From the NCBI GenBank assembly GCA_003153585.1, contig PLZZ01000072.1, positions 4,335-10,032 on the forward strand: a stretch of DNA of 5,698 bases, written 5' to 3'. The DNA comes from Acidobacteriota bacterium. GTDB lineage: Bacteria; Acidobacteriota; Terriglobia; Acidiferrales; UBA7541. The notes beneath the pieces are model-generated. The model had not been told where the DNA came from and made no database searches. It saw only the letters and a list, made by a program, of their open reading frames with translations. A program made the position numbers and the translations under genes. The stretch's first letter is position 1. Each line of letters starts with the position of its first letter. Below, piece by piece: positions 427 to 5,693 of this stretch.

Positions 427-822
427 ATGAAATTCGGGAAGCGTTTTTCAGTATTGGGGGCTACCTTATTTTTCGGCGCTTCACTGCTCGCAAGTCCCAT
501 CCCGCAGAGCGGTCAGCAGCCTGCCCCTGACAACACCAAGATGAATCAGGGGGACGCCAGCAAAGATGCAACGACCGCCGATCAGCAGAAGATGAATCCC
601 GCCGATCGCAACACCACCAGGCAAATTCGCAAATCCATCATGCAGGATAAATCGCTCTCCACCTACGCCCATAACATCAAGATCATCACCCAGGACGGCA
701 AGGTCACTTTGAAGGGGCCGGTTCGCACTGCAGATGATAAGGCGAGCCTAGAAGCCAAAGCCGTTGCCGTCGCTGGCGCGGACAACGTGACCGACCAGCT
801 CGAAATCGCTCCAAAGCAGTAA
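427..822 (+). CDS. Secreted BON-domain protein (OsmY-like)
   Basis: The 131-residue protein begins with a basic N-terminus (MKFGKR) and a hydrophobic stretch, residues 7-22, ending LLAS, which reads as a Sec signal peptide cleaved near residue 22. A polar, low-complexity linker rich in Gln, Asp, Lys and Thr (about 24-60) follows, then one BON domain (about 62-127) with the typical IRKSIMQDKSLSTYAHNIKI, DGKVTLKGPVRT and GADNVTDQLEI blocks. BON domains (OsmY and relatives) are small alpha/beta folds tied to envelope interactions and osmotic or desiccation stress. No enzyme activity is expected. It most likely acts in the periplasm. A stress-type protein gene follows after 55 bases with almost the same ribosome-binding leader and no terminator between, so the two are probably co-transcribed. 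The domain call is strong; the exact role is inferred. Confidence 0.88.
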   Translation: MKFGKRFSVLGATLFFGASLLASPIPQSGQQPAPDNTKMNQGDASKDATTADQQKMNPADRNTTRQIRKSIMQDKSLSTYAHNIKIITQDGKVTLKGPVRTADDKASLEAKAVAVAGADNVTDQLEIAPKQ

Positions 823-877: not shown

Positions 878-1456
878 ATGTCAGGAAAGAAAACGGCAGT
901 GTTCGGAATCTACGGTTCGCGCGAGACAGTCGAGCGCGCCGTCGATACATTCGTAAAGAGCGGCTTCTCAACTTCAGATGTTTCGGTCCTTTTGCCCGAA
1001 AATCTGGGCGCGAAGCCCATCGCAACGGACAAAGCTACAAAGGCTCCTGAAGGCGCAACGGCTGGCGCAGGGTCTGGCGCCGTCATTGGCGGAACTCTGG
1101 GACTCTTGGCCGGAATTGGCGCTCTCGCAATTCCAGGCGTGGGTCCGTTCATCGCCGCAGGCCCGATCATGGCCGCCTTGGCCGGCATCGGTGTAGGTGG
1201 CGCAGTGGGCGGTTTCACAGGTGCTCTGATTGGTTTGGGTATTCCGGAGTACGAGGCAAAACGCTACGAAGGCCGCATTCAAAAGGGCGGAATTCTCTTG
1301 TCGGTGCATTGCGATACTTCCGACGAGATTAAGCGCGCGAAGGAAGTCATGAAGAACACCGGCGGGGAAGATATTTCCTCCACCAGCGAATCTTCTTCCG
1401 ACGTGTCAAAATCCGACCGCGACCTCAACCGTCGTGCAGCCGGCGCCACTGACTAA
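878..1456 (+). CDS. Glycine-rich YflT-like general stress protein
   Basis: The 192-residue protein opens with a ferredoxin-like half, TAVFGIYGSRETVERAVD (about 6-23) and a GFSTSDVSVLLPE segment (29-41), as in the YflT / general-stress-17M group. A long Gly/Ala-rich hydrophobic centre follows (62-122) with AIPGVGPFIAAGP and repeated GGxxG steps, then GIPEYEAKRYEGRIQKGGIL (121-140), the usual motif closing this family. The tail (165-192) is Ser/Asp-rich and probably disordered. The hydrophobic centre may insert in or pack on membranes, but the family has no established biochemical activity. AAGGAG at 864-869 sits 8 bases before the ATG, matching the upstream BON gene's leader almost base for base. 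Family membership is likely; names in use vary (low-temperature-induced, general stress, DUF3341-like). The role in stress is inferred from family and neighbours. Confidence 0.8.
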   Translation: MSGKKTAVFGIYGSRETVERAVDTFVKSGFSTSDVSVLLPENLGAKPIATDKATKAPEGATAGAGSGAVIGGTLGLLAGIGALAIPGVGPFIAAGPIMAALAGIGVGGAVGGFTGALIGLGIPEYEAKRYEGRIQKGGILLSVHCDTSDEIKRAKEVMKNTGGEDISSTSESSSDVSKSDRDLNRRAAGATD

Positions 1457-1569: not shown

Positions 1570-1722
1570 ATGGCTGGCGAAGGAAGAAAGTGCGCTCACC
1601 CAGTATGCTCCTGCACTGTAACGTCCAAGAAGTACTGCAGCGAGGCCTGCGAGGCAATGGAAAAAACTCCCGATATTGACTGCCACTGCGCTCACCCCGG
1701 CTGCAAAGGGCGAGTCAGTTAG
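1570..1722 (+). CDS. Small bacterial metallothionein (SmtA/BmtA-like)
   Basis: This 50-residue protein has eight Cys (8, 13, 15, 23, 27, 38, 40, 45) and three His (10, 39, 42). The central KKYCSEAC (20-27) is the signature of the prokaryotic metallothionein family (cyanobacterial SmtA, pseudomonad BmtA), where the zinc-finger-like part carries YYCSEAC. CAHPVCSC (8-15) corresponds to the family's CxCxxCxC start, and CAHPGC (40-45) to CGHTGC. These proteins chelate Zn, Cd or Cu through Cys and His clusters in the cytosol. Differences from SmtA: the second Cys is His10, the last Cys is absent (KG follows Cys45) and Cys38 is extra; the total of 11 potential ligands equals SmtA's. The start is ATG 1570, with GGGAGG 5 bases upstream; a longer in-frame start would lie inside the preceding terminator. 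It is probably its own transcription unit. Product call strong; metal preference unknown. Confidence 0.87.
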   Translation: MAGEGRKCAHPVCSCTVTSKKYCSEACEAMEKTPDIDCHCAHPGCKGRVS

Positions 1723-1805: not shown

Positions 1806-1988
1806 CTATTCGGCAATCTTAAAAAATCGATTGTGGCACTCCTGGCAACGGTAAGGCCGAAATCGAACTATCTGCAATATTCGGTCAACCACTCCATGCC
1901 TGTGCGATCGGCGAACTATAGCACTGCCGCATTGAGGACATGTACGTTGTACTGCGCTAGCTGTATGTTGCAACGTATTGGTCGACAT
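1806..1988 (-). CDS. 60-residue zinc-ribbon protein, function unknown
   Basis: The protein carries two CxxC knuckles, Cys17/Cys20 (TCPQCGS) and Cys48/Cys51 (YRCQECHNRF), about 27 residues apart: a zinc ribbon. The middle RRSHRHGVVDRILQI and RFRPYRC segments match my memory of a small-protein family frequent in acidobacteria and relatives, with pattern CPxCGS..RRSHRRG..ER....RPFRC..C..RF. The many Arg and His residues would allow nucleic-acid binding, but no function is established. Support for it being real: the ATG at 1988 is preceded by GGAGGTGAT, a full complement of the 16S tail, and the zinc-ribbon pattern is intact. It is convergent with the metallothionein gene, whose stop is 83 bases away. 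A zinc site next to a metal-binding protein may be coincidence. Confidence 0.78.
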   Translation of the reverse strand: MSTNTLQHTASAVQRTCPQCGSAIVRRSHRHGVVDRILQIVRFRPYRCQECHNRFFKIAE

Positions 1989-2477: not shown

Positions 2478-3593
2478 TCAGCCGTACCATTCCACTTCGC
2501 GCAGCAAGCGCATGAATTCGCAAGAATCGAATTCCAGAATCAGCTCGCAAGTTCGGGCAATCCGGAATTTTCTCGACAGGTTCTTGGCCTTGCCCATCTC
2601 CACATTTAGCCCTTCCAGCGAATGAAGCGTTGCGCGATGGCGCAAAGCGTTCCTCTCGAACTCGCGAGAGGCGCGGTAGGTCCGAATTCCCGCAACCATC
2701 GCCGGCAACAACGCCGCCCCTAAAACTAAGACACCGGCCAGCGATTCATTCGGCTTGTCTTTGTGCACATATTCTGTAGAAACCAGCGAAGCATGAAACA
2801 GCACGAGTCCAAAACTGACAAAGAACAAAACAGTCGTCAACAAACGCGACATCGTACCGCCCTTTTCTTCTTCATCACTTTTGGCCGCAAGATAGTCCAT
2901 TTGTGTGCCAAGACGTTTCTCGCAGTAATACTGGATTATTTCGTGCAGTGCTTCATGGCAGTTATCAGGGCAATGTATTTCCGAGACGTCCGGTATCACA
3001 CCTTGCGCAGCACGCTCCTGCACGTCTTCGTAAACCAATCCGTGCAGGGCCCGGACCGCCGCGCGCACGTCGTCGCGAACATGGTCGGACGACGTTTCGC
3101 CGCTTCTGTCGATCCCTCCGCTCTCATCGCACCAGAGACGAGAGTCCATGAGCGTCTTAAATTTTAGAAGTCGGAGGTTTTCGGCTTGGTACCGCGCCAA
3201 GAGCCAATGATTTTTCGGCTTTTTGACGGTTCCTCTAAAAATACACCACAGGCACAAGAAGGTTGCGGAGCTTTCCAGCAGTATGAAGGGCAGTTCGCTG
3301 GCATGAGGCCGGAATTTCGCCAAACCAATTTCGCAGATGCCAAGGAGCACCGCGGCCAATCCCGAACCCACCGCAGCCAACGAAAGGTGCTGATAGCTCT
3401 TTCGAGAGTTCTTTGCGCGCTCGTCCGCCGCCCGAAATTCGCCGAGGATCAATTCCTCAGCCAGCTTCAACGCATTGAAAAGAGGCAGATAACGTTTGTG
3501 ACCCGCTTCTACTTTCTCGCGGCAAAACGAAATCTCAAACGAATCGTCCATGTCGTCGAACGAACGGGTTAGTGGCGAAGCCGAGGTTGCCAT
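2478..3593 (-). CDS. Four-helix membrane protein, tandem SLATT/DUF4231-like
   Basis: The 371-residue protein has four predicted membrane helices in two pairs: about 71-90 and 100-119, then about 250-270 and 285-305. Each pair has cytosolic helical flanks. Before the first is FRAADERAKNSRKSYQHL (53-70); after it HWLLARYQAENLRLLKFKTL (129-148). Before the second is YYCEKRLGTQMDYLAAKSDE (222-241), matching the Y..xRlxxQxxYyxxKA pattern I know from SLATT/DUF4231 proteins; after it YRASREFERNALRHRATLHS (306-325). SLATT modules are two-helix membrane domains predicted to act as pore-forming or membrane-disrupting effectors in nucleotide-signal defence systems. Two copies in one chain would fit a duplication. 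A Cys-containing segment (HCPDNCHEALHE, 207-218) lies between the pairs. The start is 3 bases after the RyR gene's stop, so translation is probably coupled. The domain assignment is by pattern and moderate; the four-helix membrane topology is well supported. Confidence 0.72.
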   Translation of the reverse strand: MATSASPLTRSFDDMDDSFEISFCREKVEAGHKRYLPLFNALKLAEELILGEFRAADERAKNSRKSYQHLSLAAVGSGLAAVLLGICEIGLAKFRPHASELPFILLESSATFLCLWCIFRGTVKKPKNHWLLARYQAENLRLLKFKTLMDSRLWCDESGGIDRSGETSSDHVRDDVRAAVRALHGLVYEDVQERAAQGVIPDVSEIHCPDNCHEALHEIIQYYCEKRLGTQMDYLAAKSDEEEKGGTMSRLLTTVLFFVSFGLVLFHASLVSTEYVHKDKPNESLAGVLVLGAALLPAMVAGIRTYRASREFERNALRHRATLHSLEGLNVEMGKAKNLSRKFRIARTCELILEFDSCEFMRLLREVEWYG

Positions 3594-3596
3594 TTC

Positions 3597-3887
3597 TCAC
3601 CGCTTTACGATGCGATACCCCAATGCAAGAATTGTTTTAAGCGTTTGATTCACCAGCTCTCGGTCGTATTCCTTCTCGGATTCCGGAAGCTGCTCGTAGG
3701 GAACCAGGCACGGATGCGTATGCTGGGCATCGTCACGCCTCGGCCCCAGCGTCCACCCATCTTCGATCCGTTTTTGCGCCCACACCTCATGCGCATTTCG
3801 CGCCAGGTCTTCCAGCAAAGGCTGCACCTCGCTGAGGCTGACGTGCGATGTATCTATCGGGTGGGGAATGTATGGTTTCTCTGCCAT
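3597..3887 (-). CDS. Stand-alone RyR (ryanodine receptor repeat) domain protein
   Basis: The 96-residue protein is essentially one RyR domain. YIPHPIDTSHVSLSEV (6-21), ARNAHEVWAQKRIEDGW (29-45), RRDDAQHTHPCLVPYEQL (50-67), ESEKEYDREL (69-78) and LKTILALGYRI (83-93) follow the family pattern: YxPxPiDts, lAxNxHexWa..r..GW, hPxLvPYxxL.exeKxxDR, lk.l..lGY.i. In animal ryanodine receptors this domain occurs as repeats in the cytosolic part of the calcium channel. Bacterial and phage versions are small soluble proteins of uncertain function, found near conflict and nucleotide-signalling genes. It is cytosolic: no signal peptide or membrane helix. I chose ATG 3887 because the RyR homology begins immediately there; GGAG lies 11 bases upstream, slightly far. 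A longer frame reaching 4109 has no family similarity in its extra part and would cross the likely promoter. First gene of a two-gene unit with the membrane protein. Confidence 0.87.
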   Translation of the reverse strand: MAEKPYIPHPIDTSHVSLSEVQPLLEDLARNAHEVWAQKRIEDGWTLGPRRDDAQHTHPCLVPYEQLPESEKEYDRELVNQTLKTILALGYRIVKR

Positions 3888-3975
3888 TCGATTGCCATCT
3901 CCGCTTGCTAATAGAGAACTTGGGACTTCTTCGGAACTTGCCGCTACTGTCCCGCCAAATCGCCTGGAGCGCGCC

Positions 3976-4004
3976 ACTATACCAGAAGACCAAACCCCGC
4001 CCAA
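3976..4004 (-). promoter_or_regulatory. Candidate promoter of the RyR-membrane protein operon
   Basis: On the - strand, TATAGT (3981-3976) is a five-of-six match to a -10 box. TTGGGC (4004-3999) lies 17 bases upstream as a poor -35. A start near 3969 would give a leader of about 80 bases. That leader contains two CAAGTTC copies 18 bases apart (3940-3934 and 3922-3916). Confidence 0.45.
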
Positions 4005-4031
4005 CAACTCCCCGGCCGCAGTCCTGCACCA

Positions 4032-4053
4032 GAGTCGAACAGTACTGTTACTC
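4032..4053. promoter_or_regulatory. Palindrome in the divergent region, candidate operator
   Basis: AACAGTACTGTT (4038-4049) is a perfect 12-bp palindrome. GAGT (4032-4035) and ACTC (4050-4053) extend it after a 2-base offset on the left. It lies upstream of both the RyR promoter candidate and the TIR gene, where one dimeric regulator could control both directions. It does not match a LexA box that I know. Confidence 0.42.
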
Positions 4054-4062
4054 GCTTTCAGT

Positions 4063-4092
4063 TTGCAAAAGCCGCAATGGGTATTAGACAAT
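4063..4092 (+). promoter_or_regulatory. Weak candidate promoter for the TIR gene
   Basis: TTGCAA (4063-4068) and GACAAT (4087-4092) are each four-of-six matches to -35 and -10 boxes with an 18-base spacer. The call is weak, but I see no better pair before the TIR start. The putative -10 falls inside the hairpin at 4073-4099. Confidence 0.25.
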
Positions 4093-4099
4093 ACTTGCG
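4073..4099 (+). promoter_or_regulatory. Hairpin upstream of the TIR gene
   Basis: GTATT (4081-4085) and AATAC (4090-4094) form a stem with an AGAC loop. CGCAA (4073-4077) and TTGCG (4095-4099) continue it to 10 pairs with a TGG bulge on the left. No T-tract follows. It may be an operator or leader structure 40 bases before the start codon. Confidence 0.38.
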
Positions 4100-4129
4100 T
4101 TTCTTGCAATCATAGCCGAGCGGTCCTTC

Positions 4130-4134
4130 GGGAG
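4130..4134 (+). promoter_or_regulatory. Ribosome binding site deciding the TIR start
   Basis: GGGAG lies 5 bases before ATG 4140. The in-frame GTG at 4134 overlaps this site and is therefore an unlikely start. Confidence 0.7.
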
Positions 4135-4139
4135 TGCGC

Positions 4140-5693
4140 ATGGATTCAGGGCCAAAAAAGGTTTTTGTCAGCTACGTTGAGGAAGACGGCGGCGTAGCGC
4201 ACGAAATTGCCAAGCAGCTCGAATCGCACGGCTATAGCAGCTGGTATTACGAACGCGATTGCCCCGCGGGCGCGGATTACTTCGAAGAAACCTTCAAAGC
4301 AATATCGGACTGCGAGGCGATGGCCATCATTATTTCTCCTCGCTCGCTGCCCTCCGACCAAATTACGCGTGAGATCGTCCGCGCCGTCGAAGCTAACAAA
4401 GCCACCCTGCCGCTGCTTCTGGACTTGACCCACGACGAGTACGCGCACCGCAGGCCCGGTTGGAAGCAGGCCATGGCTGCCGCCAATGCCACTCGCGTGC
4501 GCGCCGATCAAATCCCCACTATCATTCCAGCCCTAGTTGCCGGCCTCCATGCCAAGGGCATTCGTGCCGACGTGGAGAATTCAGCTCCGCCTGCTCCGCC
4601 CGCCGCTGTCGCGCGCCCGGCGCCCGACGTCGCTCCCACCGCTCCGCCCGCGCCCGTGAAAGCGGTTGCTCCGCCTAGTGCGCGTGCCGTTCCGCCTCCC
4701 GCGCAAAGCGCGCAAATTGCAACCAACTCCCCTGTCGCCGCGACGAAACCTCCGTGGATTCCGATCGCCGCAGGCGCCGCAGTTGTCATCGCTGCTCTTG
4801 CTGGATGGCATTTTCTCAAGCCGCATCCAAAGCCTGCTCCTGTGCCGGTTGCGCCTGCCACCGCCACCATCGTCTTGAAATATAACGTGGACCGCCATCT
4901 GTGCACGCCGAATCTGAATATGACCGTCGCCGGCAAAACCTTTCATCTGGCCACGAATCCTTATGCTGCTAACGACGTGCCCAAAGGCCAGCAGCAGTAT
5001 TCCATTGATGGGCTGGTCTCCTGCCCCGGTAGAAAGCCCAGCAATGCTTCAGGCTCGGGCGTCATTGACGTCCACGAAGGCGTGGTCTTCGATATGAACT
5101 GGCAAAGTAAGCCGGGCGGCGCTGGAATTATCGAAGTGGTAGACGCCAGCACCGAGCCGGTCAAAGCGCCTGAAGAAAACGTGCGCGTTACCAAGCCGGC
5201 CGCTACCGCATCAACCGTTCCCGTATCTTCCGCCAATCCGAGTCAAGCCATGTTTGCAAATGCGCAGGCCGCCTACGCGCAGGCGCGCTACTTCGAGCCG
5301 CCGAATGATTGTGCGCTTCACTGGGCTATACTCGCCGGGAAAGCGGGTAATCCCGCCGGTAAAGCGATGGAGCAGCAACTCGGCAATCAGTTTCGCGCGC
5401 AGCTCAACCAGCTTTCTCAGCAGCAGAATTTTCCTGCCGCTCTCCACTTGGTGAACGCGATGCTGGTTTATTATCCGAGTAGCCCTGAGCTCGCCGGCGA
5501 TCAACAAAGACTAATTGCCGCACAAAATGGTGCGCCACCAGGACCTGGTCAGATGAACCCGCTCAATCCCGGTCTGCGCCCCGGCTTTCCGCCTCAACCG
5601 GGCCCAGGTTACCAATATAACGCGCAAGCCCAGGCCAGAGCCGCGGCAGCCGCAGCAGCACAACAACGAGCCGCGCAGCAAAGGCCTCACTAA
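4140..5693 (+). CDS. Membrane-anchored TIR-domain protein with extracytoplasmic C-terminus
   Basis: The 517-residue protein starts with a TIR domain (about 6-140): KVFVSY (7-12) is box 1, YYERDCPAGADYFEE (36-50) covers the BB-loop region, and AIIISPRSLPSDQITREI (62-79) has the Ser-rich turn followed by Glu78, where TIR NADases carry their catalytic glutamate. ATLPLLLDL (88-96) is the next strand. A Pro/Ala-rich linker (148-206) leads to one membrane helix (about 207-226). Beyond it are a beta-rich segment (about 240-340) with Cys255 and Cys295, possibly a disulfide; a helical, TPR/Sel1-like region (about 369-462) containing NDCALHWAILAGKAGNP; and a Pro/Gly/Gln tail ending in polyalanine. With the TIR in the cytosol, the C-terminus would be outside. 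TIR domains of this kind cleave NAD+ or act as protein adaptors; which applies here is unproven. It is divergent from the RyR-membrane protein operon. The TIR call is firm; the C-terminal domains are unrecognised. Confidence 0.88.
   Translation: MDSGPKKVFVSYVEEDGGVAHEIAKQLESHGYSSWYYERDCPAGADYFEETFKAISDCEAMAIIISPRSLPSDQITREIVRAVEANKATLPLLLDLTHDEYAHRRPGWKQAMAAANATRVRADQIPTIIPALVAGLHAKGIRADVENSAPPAPPAAVARPAPDVAPTAPPAPVKAVAPPSARAVPPPAQSAQIATNSPVAATKPPWIPIAAGAAVVIAALAGWHFLKPHPKPAPVPVAPATATIVLKYNVDRHLCTPNLNMTVAGKTFHLATNPYAANDVPKGQQQYSIDGLVSCPGRKPSNASGSGVIDVHEGVVFDMNWQSKPGGAGIIEVVDASTEPVKAPEENVRVTKPAATASTVPVSSANPSQAMFANAQAAYAQARYFEPPNDCALHWAILAGKAGNPAGKAMEQQLGNQFRAQLNQLSQQQNFPAALHLVNAMLVYYPSSPELAGDQQRLIAAQNGAPPGPGQMNPLNPGLRPGFPPQPGPGYQYNAQAQARAAAAAAAQQRAAQQRPH

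What the first reader, a model, noticed from the sequence alone, without database searches (positions are those of the whole stretch)
2478..5693. Compact TIR / RyR / four-helix SLATT-like locus: candidate signalling or defence module
Three adjacent genes carry domains that recur in bacterial conflict and nucleotide-signalling systems: a TIR domain with a candidate NADase Glu78, a stand-alone RyR domain, and a membrane protein with two SLATT-like two-helix units. RyR and membrane genes are coupled (3-base gap); the TIR gene diverges from a shared 252-base region. This exact combination is not one I can match to a named system. Seen: domains and layout. Inferred: that they work together.
Basis: partly seen in the sequence, partly recalled or inferred. 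Interest (0 to 1): 0.82.

Follow-up and report, generated by a model that had tools for sequence, protein, structure and literature searches.

The report
Bacterial ryanodine-receptor-domain signalling and pore module
Three neighbouring bacterial genes, whose relatives sit together in genomes of at least six phyla, encode a TIR protein, a small protein that closely matches the nucleotide-binding repeat of animal ryanodine receptors, and a predicted membrane protein; together they likely act as an alarm in which the TIR enzyme would make an ADP-ribose-type signal that the ryanodine-like protein would sense to switch on the predicted membrane pore.

Summary
The window encodes a TIR protein (4140-5693, +), a 96-residue RyR-domain protein (3887-3597, -) and a predicted four-helix tandem-SLATT protein (3593-2478, -), with the stated 3-base gap and 252-base divergent region. 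The association recurs: a genome scan with SLATT patterns alone gave 14 relatives in seven phyla. All 14 stretches carry RyR, and all 18 RyR domains found in those 14 genomes lie there. A TIR_2 gene lies in 11 of 14 (about 0.15 expected by random placement), and a DUF4062 gene (TIR-like NADase family) in a twelfth. Two homologues fuse RyR to SLATT. Against: one full-length relative (G372) lacks RyR and TIR, and three more distant SLATT relatives stand beside TIR without RyR. [quoted passage not shown] Best reading: TIR makes a (c)ADPR-type signal, RyR receives it, SLATT permeabilises the membrane: a Thoeris-like system with a RyR receptor. Ligand, pore activity and anti-phage role are inferred. 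The key preprint on new TIR systems (Yirmiya 2025) was not held, so priority is unsettled.

The parts
4140..5693 (+). TIR-TM gene, 517 aa: N-terminal TIR, Pro-rich linker, one transmembrane helix, C-terminal region modelled (low confidence) as beta-sandwich plus TPR-like helices
   Evidence: Pfam TIR_2 58.6 bits; homologues start at this ATG; TM 207-225; model pLDDT 57
4161..4430 (+). TIR domain (TIR_2 match)
   Evidence: residues 10-99 of the 519-aa frame from 4134; Foldseek places it among TIR structures incl. AbTir, BtTir, SARM1
4371..4373 (+). Glu78, candidate catalytic residue
   Evidence: invariant in 25 of 25 family rows; the same column is Glu in the 11 TIR rows aligned across loci, read by eye
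4758..4814 (+). transmembrane helix of the TIR protein
   Evidence: hydropathy; helix 207-226 in the model
3888..4139 (.). 252-base divergent intergenic region
   Evidence: one weak promoter-like site 4085-4113 towards the TIR gene, none towards RyR
3597..3887 (-). RyR-domain gene, 96 aa
   Evidence: Pfam 119.2 bits; 80.5 bits to the first repeat of RyR1 and of RyR3; start set by homologues
3663..3791 (-). nucleotide-pocket residues H33, W36, R40, R51, H58, D75 of the RyR protein
   Evidence: invariant in A3, 26 rows chosen from the 120 listed hits; match RyDEP spacing and RyR3 Trp880/Lys884/Arg895
2478..3593 (-). tandem-SLATT membrane protein gene, 371 aa
   Evidence: SLATT_1 26.9 bits, SLATT_3 15.6; four predicted TM helices
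3237..3380 (-). first two-helix unit (SLATT_3-like)
2685..2837 (-). second two-helix unit (SLATT_1-like)

Best explanation
The locus encodes a TIR protein, a RyR-domain protein and a tandem-SLATT membrane protein that likely form one TIR-triggered signalling cassette, in which the TIR enzyme would turn NAD+ into an ADP-ribose-type signal (such as 2'- or 3'-cADPR), the RyR protein would bind that signal, and the bound RyR would be predicted to open the SLATT protein as a membrane pore that disables the cell. Shown here: domains, layout, conserved pocket residues, recurrent linkage across phyla, RyR-SLATT fusions. Inferred: NADase activity, identity of the ligand, RyR as receptor rather than hydrolase, pore formation, and phage as the trigger. 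In this clade the TIR protein has one predicted helix, and its C-terminal part (with two invariant cysteines, C255 and C295) would lie outside the cytoplasm, so the trigger may be sensed at the envelope; in other lineages the TIR carries other parts (TPR, HEAT, FGE-sulfatase, kinase, NACHT-like plus WD40) while RyR and SLATT stay.
For: (1) Linkage. The genome-contig scan used SLATT-only patterns and confirmed with the RyR-free window protein; it gave 14 loci. RyR is in 14 of 14 stretches, within 700 bp of the SLATT frame in 13 of 14; all 18 RyR domains found in the 14 genomes lie in these stretches. TIR_2 is in 11 of 14, against 0.15 expected by random placement from each genome's own TIR count; 10 of those 11 lie within 600 bp of the RyR or SLATT frame. 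L047 has DUF4062 instead, a family described as TIR-like NADases (PMC13174449, abstract in the listing). (2) RyR fused to tandem SLATT in P0147 and P0148, 2 of 87 homologues. (3) Pocket. H33, W36, H58, D75 have the exact spacing of RyDEP H75, W78, H100, D117, which contact the 3'cADPR-derived ligand (PMC13232231). W36, R40, R51 align to RyR3 Trp880, Lys884, Arg895, which hold adenine and phosphates (PMC12627627 passages; alignment). Six of eight further phage RyR domains bound cADPR signals. (4) A related SLATT pair beside RyR in G116 is fused to a LSDAT/SLOG domain. (5) NUDIX genes beside the TIR in L048 and L052. (6) SLATT has been predicted to be an ADPr-derivative-regulated membrane effector, and TIR-SLATT neighbours occur in firmicute phages (PMC9503650 passage).
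Against: No ligand, pore or phage data. G372 has a full-length SLATT relative with no RyR in its genome (absent) and no RyR or TIR on its 14.0 kb contig. More distant SLATT relatives in G102 (C16), G376 and G460 have TIR beside them but their genomes have no RyR, so SLATT can pair with TIR without RyR. L056 has RyR and SLATT but no TIR in 13.6 kb; L055 cannot be judged (3.1 kb contig). Stand-alone RyR genes occur without SLATT or TIR nearby by these profiles (G173, G358, one G258 copy). The pocket keeps the catalytic dyad of RyDEP, so RyR could hydrolyse rather than sense. DUF4062 is reported to give plain ADP-ribose, so a cyclic signal is not assured. The window's flanks (BON, YflT-like stress genes, histidine kinase, cupin-like) are not an evident defence island. 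The random-placement figure ignores clustering of defence genes. The SLATT profile matches no solved structure by sequence.
Confidence: 0.58

Rival explanations
1. RyR is the off-switch. As in phage RyDEP, the RyR protein hydrolyses the TIR signal to linear ADPR and so holds back a SLATT effector that senses the signal by itself; TIR, RyR and SLATT then resemble enzyme, antidote and toxin.
For: Both RyDEP catalytic residues (H75, D117) have counterparts at the same spacing, H33 and D75, invariant in 26 rows; the RyR gene precedes SLATT with a 3-base gap; distant SLATT relatives in G102, G376 and G460 pair with TIR and lack RyR.
Against: RyR is fused to SLATT in P0147/P0148, as a receptor would be; of eight further phage RyR domains tested, six bound cADPR signals and none of the eight cleaved them; human R12 binds adenine nucleotides.
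Confidence: 0.19
2. Guard logic. The TIR makes a signal all the time that keeps RyR-SLATT closed; phage RyR-type or other sponges that remove the signal open the pore, in the manner of Panoptes.
For: Panoptes uses decoy cyclic nucleotides to detect phage indirectly (PMC12657218, abstract start in the listings); phages carry RyR proteins that strip TIR signals, and 219 of 50,697 phage records hold a RyR match.
Against: The TIRs are fused to sensor-like parts that differ between lineages, which suggests triggered rather than constant synthesis.
Confidence: 0.08
3. Envelope or stress signalling rather than phage defence: a TIR receptor with an external domain controls ion flux through RyR-SLATT in a housekeeping pathway.
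For: TIR-TM protein with a C-terminal region bearing two invariant cysteines; flanking genes are stress-type (BON, YflT).
Against: Patchy presence: RyR in 2 of the 6 genus genomes and 8 of the 200 class genomes sampled; sensor parts vary as in conflict systems.
Confidence: 0.12
4. Chance neighbours with no joint function.
For: The TIR gene is divergent, not in the RyR-SLATT operon.
Against: 14 of 14 RyR and 11 of 14 TIR linkages across seven phyla, with changed gene order and same-strand runs in L046, L049, L051.
Confidence: 0.03

Closest known systems
Thoeris anti-phage systems
   Same: TIR protein paired with an effector; TIR makes cADPR-type signals, 3'cADPR in type I and 2'cADPR in type VI (PMC13232231)
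   Different: No SIR2-SLOG (ThsA) partner here; the candidate receptor is a RyR domain and the candidate effector a tandem SLATT. PADLOC's best matches to the TIR are SAVED_TIR 29.9 and ThsB 22.2 bits; NCBIfam ThcB4 is 17.1 bits against a cut-off of 220. What the effectors of the other types are is recalled, not checked
RyDEP, phage RyR-domain defence-evasion proteins
   Same: Same domain family; pocket residues at the same spacing
   Different: RyDEP is phage-borne and inserted in a NARP1 operon; this RyR is chromosomal, next to or (in homologues) fused with a membrane protein and linked to TIR
Animal ryanodine receptor R12 repeat and the B. thetaiotaomicron RyR protein (3nrt)
   Different: Separate 96-aa gene or fused to SLATT, not part of a calcium channel; by the alignment repeat 1 of RyR1 has Asn at the D75 position
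TIR-SLATT pairs of firmicute phages and SLATT in nucleotide-signal conflict systems
   Same: TIR next to a 2TM SLATT effector (PMC9503650 passage; PMC7159879 passage)
   Different: Tandem SLATT plus a RyR protein; bacterial chromosomes; the one viral-contig scan found no relative of this SLATT family

Membership tests
RyR domain family (PF02026) | Profile match over curated cut-off | tested here: met
   119.2 bits against 27.4
RyR domain family (PF02026) | Nucleotide-pocket residues of R12/RyDEP | tested here: met
   H33, W36, R40, R51, H58, D75 present; invariant in 26 rows; RyDEP mapping is by spacing only
RyDEP-type cADPR glycosidase | Cleaves 2'/3'cADPR | not testable with these tools
   Dyad residues present, but eight further phage homologues did not cleave
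SLATT superfamily | Profile match and 2TM unit | tested here: met
   PF18181 26.9 against 26.3, narrowly; NCBIfam models under cut-off; two TM pairs
Thoeris | TIR protein of a ThsB/ThcB family | tested here: inconclusive
   TIR_2 yes; PADLOC ThsB 22.2 and 14.9 bits; NCBIfam ThcB4 far under cut-off
Thoeris type I | ThsA effector with SIR2 and SLOG (recalled definition) | tested here: not met
   Partners are RyR and SLATT; no SIR2 or SLOG match in the three proteins
Thoeris | TIR-made signal activates the partner; phage protection | not testable with these tools
   Needs biochemistry and plaque assays
CBASS and other SMODS systems | CD-NTase (SMODS) gene at the locus | tested here: inconclusive
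   No such match for the six window ORFs scanned with Pfam; the contig's other ORFs were listed but not profiled

The most novel reading that the evidence does not exclude
Bacteria have their own cADPR-to-ryanodine-receptor-domain-to-membrane pathway: TIR enzymes make cyclic ADP-ribose isomers, a RyR domain of the animal R12 type is their receptor, and it opens a tandem-SLATT pore. This is a new, widely spread TIR signalling type, and one node of a larger RyR-reader network that also includes the TrkA_N-RyR, AAA-RyR and RelA/SpoT-RyR proteins found at some of the same loci.
Probability: 0.44. Interest if true: 0.92.

Novelty: new variant of a known kind. Interest (0 to 1): 0.8.

Why it matters
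Whether cADPR acts directly on ryanodine receptors has long been an open question (recalled; PMC13232231 also calls for studies of it). A bacterial locus that links a TIR enzyme, a RyR domain of the animal R12 type and a membrane effector makes the question testable with small proteins. It would also suggest a host-side origin for phage RyDEP proteins (phages taking over a receptor domain as sponge or hydrolase), add a receptor class to TIR immunity, and give a function to a domain family with 1,557 hits in one protein search here.

Tried and rejected
Chance neighbours: set aside after the survey. Viral origin of the SLATT family: the viral-contig scan found no relative. The 170-aa RyR ORF: set aside for the 96-aa start; of the 24 best homologues P0001 is 172 aa (74% identity over 98% of the long frame, a point for the long frame) and 19 of the other 23 are exactly 96 aa. 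Empty-site comparison in the genus: a near-identical histidine-kinase flank gene occurs only in G000 and G134, and the right-flank cupin-like gene is found in G000 and, in pieces, G182, not G134, so no clean empty site. Whole TIR protein model: low confidence (pLDDT 57); in the 50 rows shown the matches are to TIR structures and a few unrelated folds such as EF-Tu; the external region stays unidentified. SLATT part: no solved relative by sequence; Foldseek and VIA rows outside RyR are helical look-alikes, inconclusive, no evidence of a new fold. Literature: nine searches showed me no held paper describing RyR-SLATT or TIR-RyR-SLATT systems, going by listings and passages; the 2015 paper that (recalled) named SLATT and the Yirmiya 2025 preprint are not held, so earlier description there cannot be excluded. 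Equal contig lengths between hit lists were used as a lead only.

SLATT relatives outside the core, told in full: G102 C16 (TIR next door, no RyR in genome), G102 C39 (only 3.4 kb looked at), G376 (TIR next door, no RyR in genome), G460 (four TIR frames, no RyR in genome), G276 (RyR next door, then DUF4062), G443 (10 kb, neither; RyR on other contigs), G497 (17 kb, partly unread bases, neither; RyR about 550 kb away). So RyR is adjacent in 1 of these 7 places and TIR or DUF4062 in 4.

RyR-centred counts, told in full: in the class sample 8 of 200 genomes have RyR. A SLATT of this or a related family is next to it in 5 of 8 (G000, G134, G120, G122, G116); TIR is in the stretch looked at in 4 (G000, G134, G120, G122), plus a weak one about 4 kb away in G014; G173 has neither, and G088 lies on a 4.6 kb contig. 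In the phylum sample 14 further genomes have RyR; I fetched wider surroundings of 4 of the 14: G276 (above), G204 (TIR, no SLATT), G358 (neither), G258 (no SLATT; one TIR about 12 kb off one copy). The wider surroundings of the RyR genes in the other 10 were not examined.
Full report
WHAT IS THERE. Three genes make up the finding. The TIR gene (4140-5693, +, 517 aa) has TIR_2 at 58.6 bits; the RyR gene (3887-3597, -, 96 aa) has PF02026 at 119.2 bits; the SLATT gene (3593-2478, -, 371 aa) has SLATT_1 at 26.9 bits, just over its cut-off, and a sub-threshold SLATT_3. The genome (74% complete) has one RyR match and one TIR_2 match, both here.

DOES IT RECUR. I aligned 29 SLATT proteins (A1) and scanned the genome collection (84,980 species) once. 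The two patterns used were SLATT stretches, and confirmation used the window's RyR-free protein, so the sample is not chosen for RyR. It gave 14 loci, by record title Acidobacteria/Terriglobia (4), Planctomycetota (2), Nitrospirae/Thermodesulfovibrionia (2; Thermodesulfovibrionia belong to Nitrospirota), Gemmatimonadetes (2), Verrucomicrobia (1), Lentisphaerae (2; a phylum of its own at NCBI) and Myxococcota (1): seven phyla. RyR is in all 14 stretches; the nearest RyR frame is within 700 bp of the SLATT frame in 13 of 14. In 10 loci it is a small stand-alone RyR gene; in L048, L050, L054 and L056 the nearest RyR sits near the end of a frame of 849-1146 residues. A whole-genome search of those 14 genomes found 18 RyR domains, every one inside the stretches held, at most about 8 kb from the SLATT match.

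TIR LINKAGE. TIR_2 is present in 11 of the 14 stretches: L045, L046, L048, L049, L050, L051, L052, L053, L054, L057, L058; all seven phyla are among them. L047 has a protein with DUF4062, a STAND-type ATPase region and TPRs directly downstream; DUF4062 is described as a TIR-like NADase family that yields ADP-ribose (PMC13174449, abstract as shown). L056 has no TIR in 13.6 kb and L055 is only 3.1 kb. From each genome's own number of TIR_2 proteins and the length held, random placement would give 0.15 loci with a TIR; the figure ignores clustering of defence genes, so the formal probability (3e-21) should not be taken literally. In 10 of 11 cases the TIR frame is within 600 bp of RyR or SLATT. 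Gene order varies: divergent TIR in the window and L045, same-strand RyR-SLATT-TIR in L046, L049 and L051. In an alignment of 11 TIR domains (window plus 10 from nine loci) each has Glu at the Glu78 column, read by eye.

EXCEPTIONS. A profile search of 396 phylum and 200 class genomes found four full-length relatives: the window, G134 (the genome of L045), G120 (that of L046) and G372. G372 has no RyR in its genome (absent) and neither RyR nor TIR on its 14.0 kb contig. So this SLATT family has RyR at the locus in 15 of 16 distinct genomes seen. More distant SLATT relatives behave differently: in G102 (C16), G376 and G460 a TIR stands beside SLATT, but the genome has no RyR. RyR itself also occurs without SLATT or TIR in view (G173, G358, one copy in G258). 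RyR is thus a near-constant partner of the core family, not of SLATT at large.

FUSION AND RELATED ARRANGEMENTS. Two of 87 SLATT homologues (P0147, P0148) are single proteins with RyR at the N-terminus and both SLATT units behind it. P0147 and the TIR homologue P0227 are listed with the same longest-contig length, so they probably share a contig. In G116 the RyR gene is divergent from a LSDAT/SLOG-SLATT_3-SLATT_1 protein. In G276 a double-RyR protein, a SLATT protein and a DUF4062-WD40 protein follow each other.

WHY RyR IS LIKELY THE RECEPTOR. A 2026 preprint (PMC13232231; I read parts 1, 2, 5 and 6 of 6 and passages; [quoted passage not shown] Spacing from the first His is +3, +25, +42; the window's protein has H33, W36, H58, D75 at +3, +25, +42. 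In human RyR3, Trp880 stacks on adenine and Lys884 and Arg895 hold phosphates (PMC12627627, passages); they align without gaps to W36, R40 and R51. All six are invariant in a 26-row alignment drawn from the listed homologues, and 17 of 19 stand-alone RyR rows from the window and loci keep all six (L045 and L097 are one gene; two fragments of L098 left out). Of 13 rows from large RyR proteins only 3 keep all six. The mapping to RyDEP rests on spacing, as its sequence was not in hand.

MECHANISM. Best reading: a trigger activates the TIR, which makes a (c)ADPR-type signal; RyR binds it; SLATT, predicted in the literature to be an ADPr-derivative-regulated or nucleotide-responsive membrane effector (PMC9503650 passage; PMC7159879 passage), permeabilises the membrane. 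In the window's clade the TIR protein has a TM helix and a C-terminal region with two invariant cysteines (C255, C295) that would be outside. Elsewhere the TIR is fused to TPR, HEAT, FGE-sulfatase, kinase or NACHT-like/WD40 parts, which fits a receptor-effector core with exchangeable sensors. NUDIX genes beside the TIR in L048 and L052 could clear the signal. Every step after the sequence features is inference.

A WIDER RyR NETWORK. At five of the 14 loci (L048, L050, L052, L054, L056) there are proteins with RelA/SpoT in the N-terminal half and RyR at the C-terminus, with a LSDAT/SLOG match between that passes its cut-off in two of the five (L052, L054); L052 adds a TrkA_N-RyR protein and L056 an AAA-RyR protein. 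RyR may be a general reader domain for one class of signal in these systems.

NOVELTY AND LIMITS. NCBIfam names none of the three proteins over a cut-off; PADLOC gives nothing for SLATT and RyR and only partial, weak TIR matches. Nine library searches showed no paper that describes the combination; the two most relevant unheld works are named under Tried and rejected. I therefore call it a new variant of TIR-receptor-effector signalling, with the receptor domain as the new element, and leave priority open.

Noticed in passing
L048:7630-10152, L050:4507-7167, L052:11846-14338, L054:13014-16448, L056:2830-5523: RelA/SpoT proteins with C-terminal RyR and a LSDAT/SLOG match (over cut-off in two of five) at the SLATT-RyR locus in five genomes; possibly a second nucleotide synthetase wired to the same reader domain.
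   Followed up: partly
L052:9056-10867; L056:9104-11959; L120:5793-8429: TrkA_N-RyR and AAA-RyR proteins; RyR as a reader domain on other effectors or regulators.
   Followed up: no
L048:10158-10577; L052:14415-14840: NUDIX genes directly before the TIR gene, possible signal-clearing enzymes.
   Followed up: no
L052:10867-11826; L056:12134-13108: Inositol monophosphatase-family genes next to RyR-bearing genes in two loci; role unexplained.
   Followed up: no
L089:6305-8077: LSDAT/SLOG-SLATT_3-SLATT_1 fusion divergent from a RyR gene, no TIR found in the 15 kb contig.
   Followed up: partly
L095:8454-9554; L122:7888-8940; L121:7410-9011: Distant SLATT relatives beside TIR genes in genomes without RyR: TIR-SLATT pairs that must sense the signal, if any, by another route.
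   Followed up: partly
L057:6238-7515: TIR protein with a sub-threshold CD225 (interferon-induced transmembrane) match at its C-terminus.
   Followed up: no
phage records MT836850.1 and MT837259.1: Two phage contigs from human faecal samples encode RyR proteins 57% and 55% identical to the window's over nearly full length, closer than the other listed phage matches.
   Followed up: no
window 1570-1722 (+): 50-residue Cys-rich protein with a sub-threshold prokaryotic metallothionein match.
   Followed up: partly
window 427-822 and 878-1456 (+): BON-domain protein and YflT-like glycine-rich stress protein; ORFs with similar ends lie next to each other in L045.
   Followed up: no
window 1806-1988 (-): 60-residue zinc-ribbon-like ORF, all matches under cut-off.
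   Followed up: no
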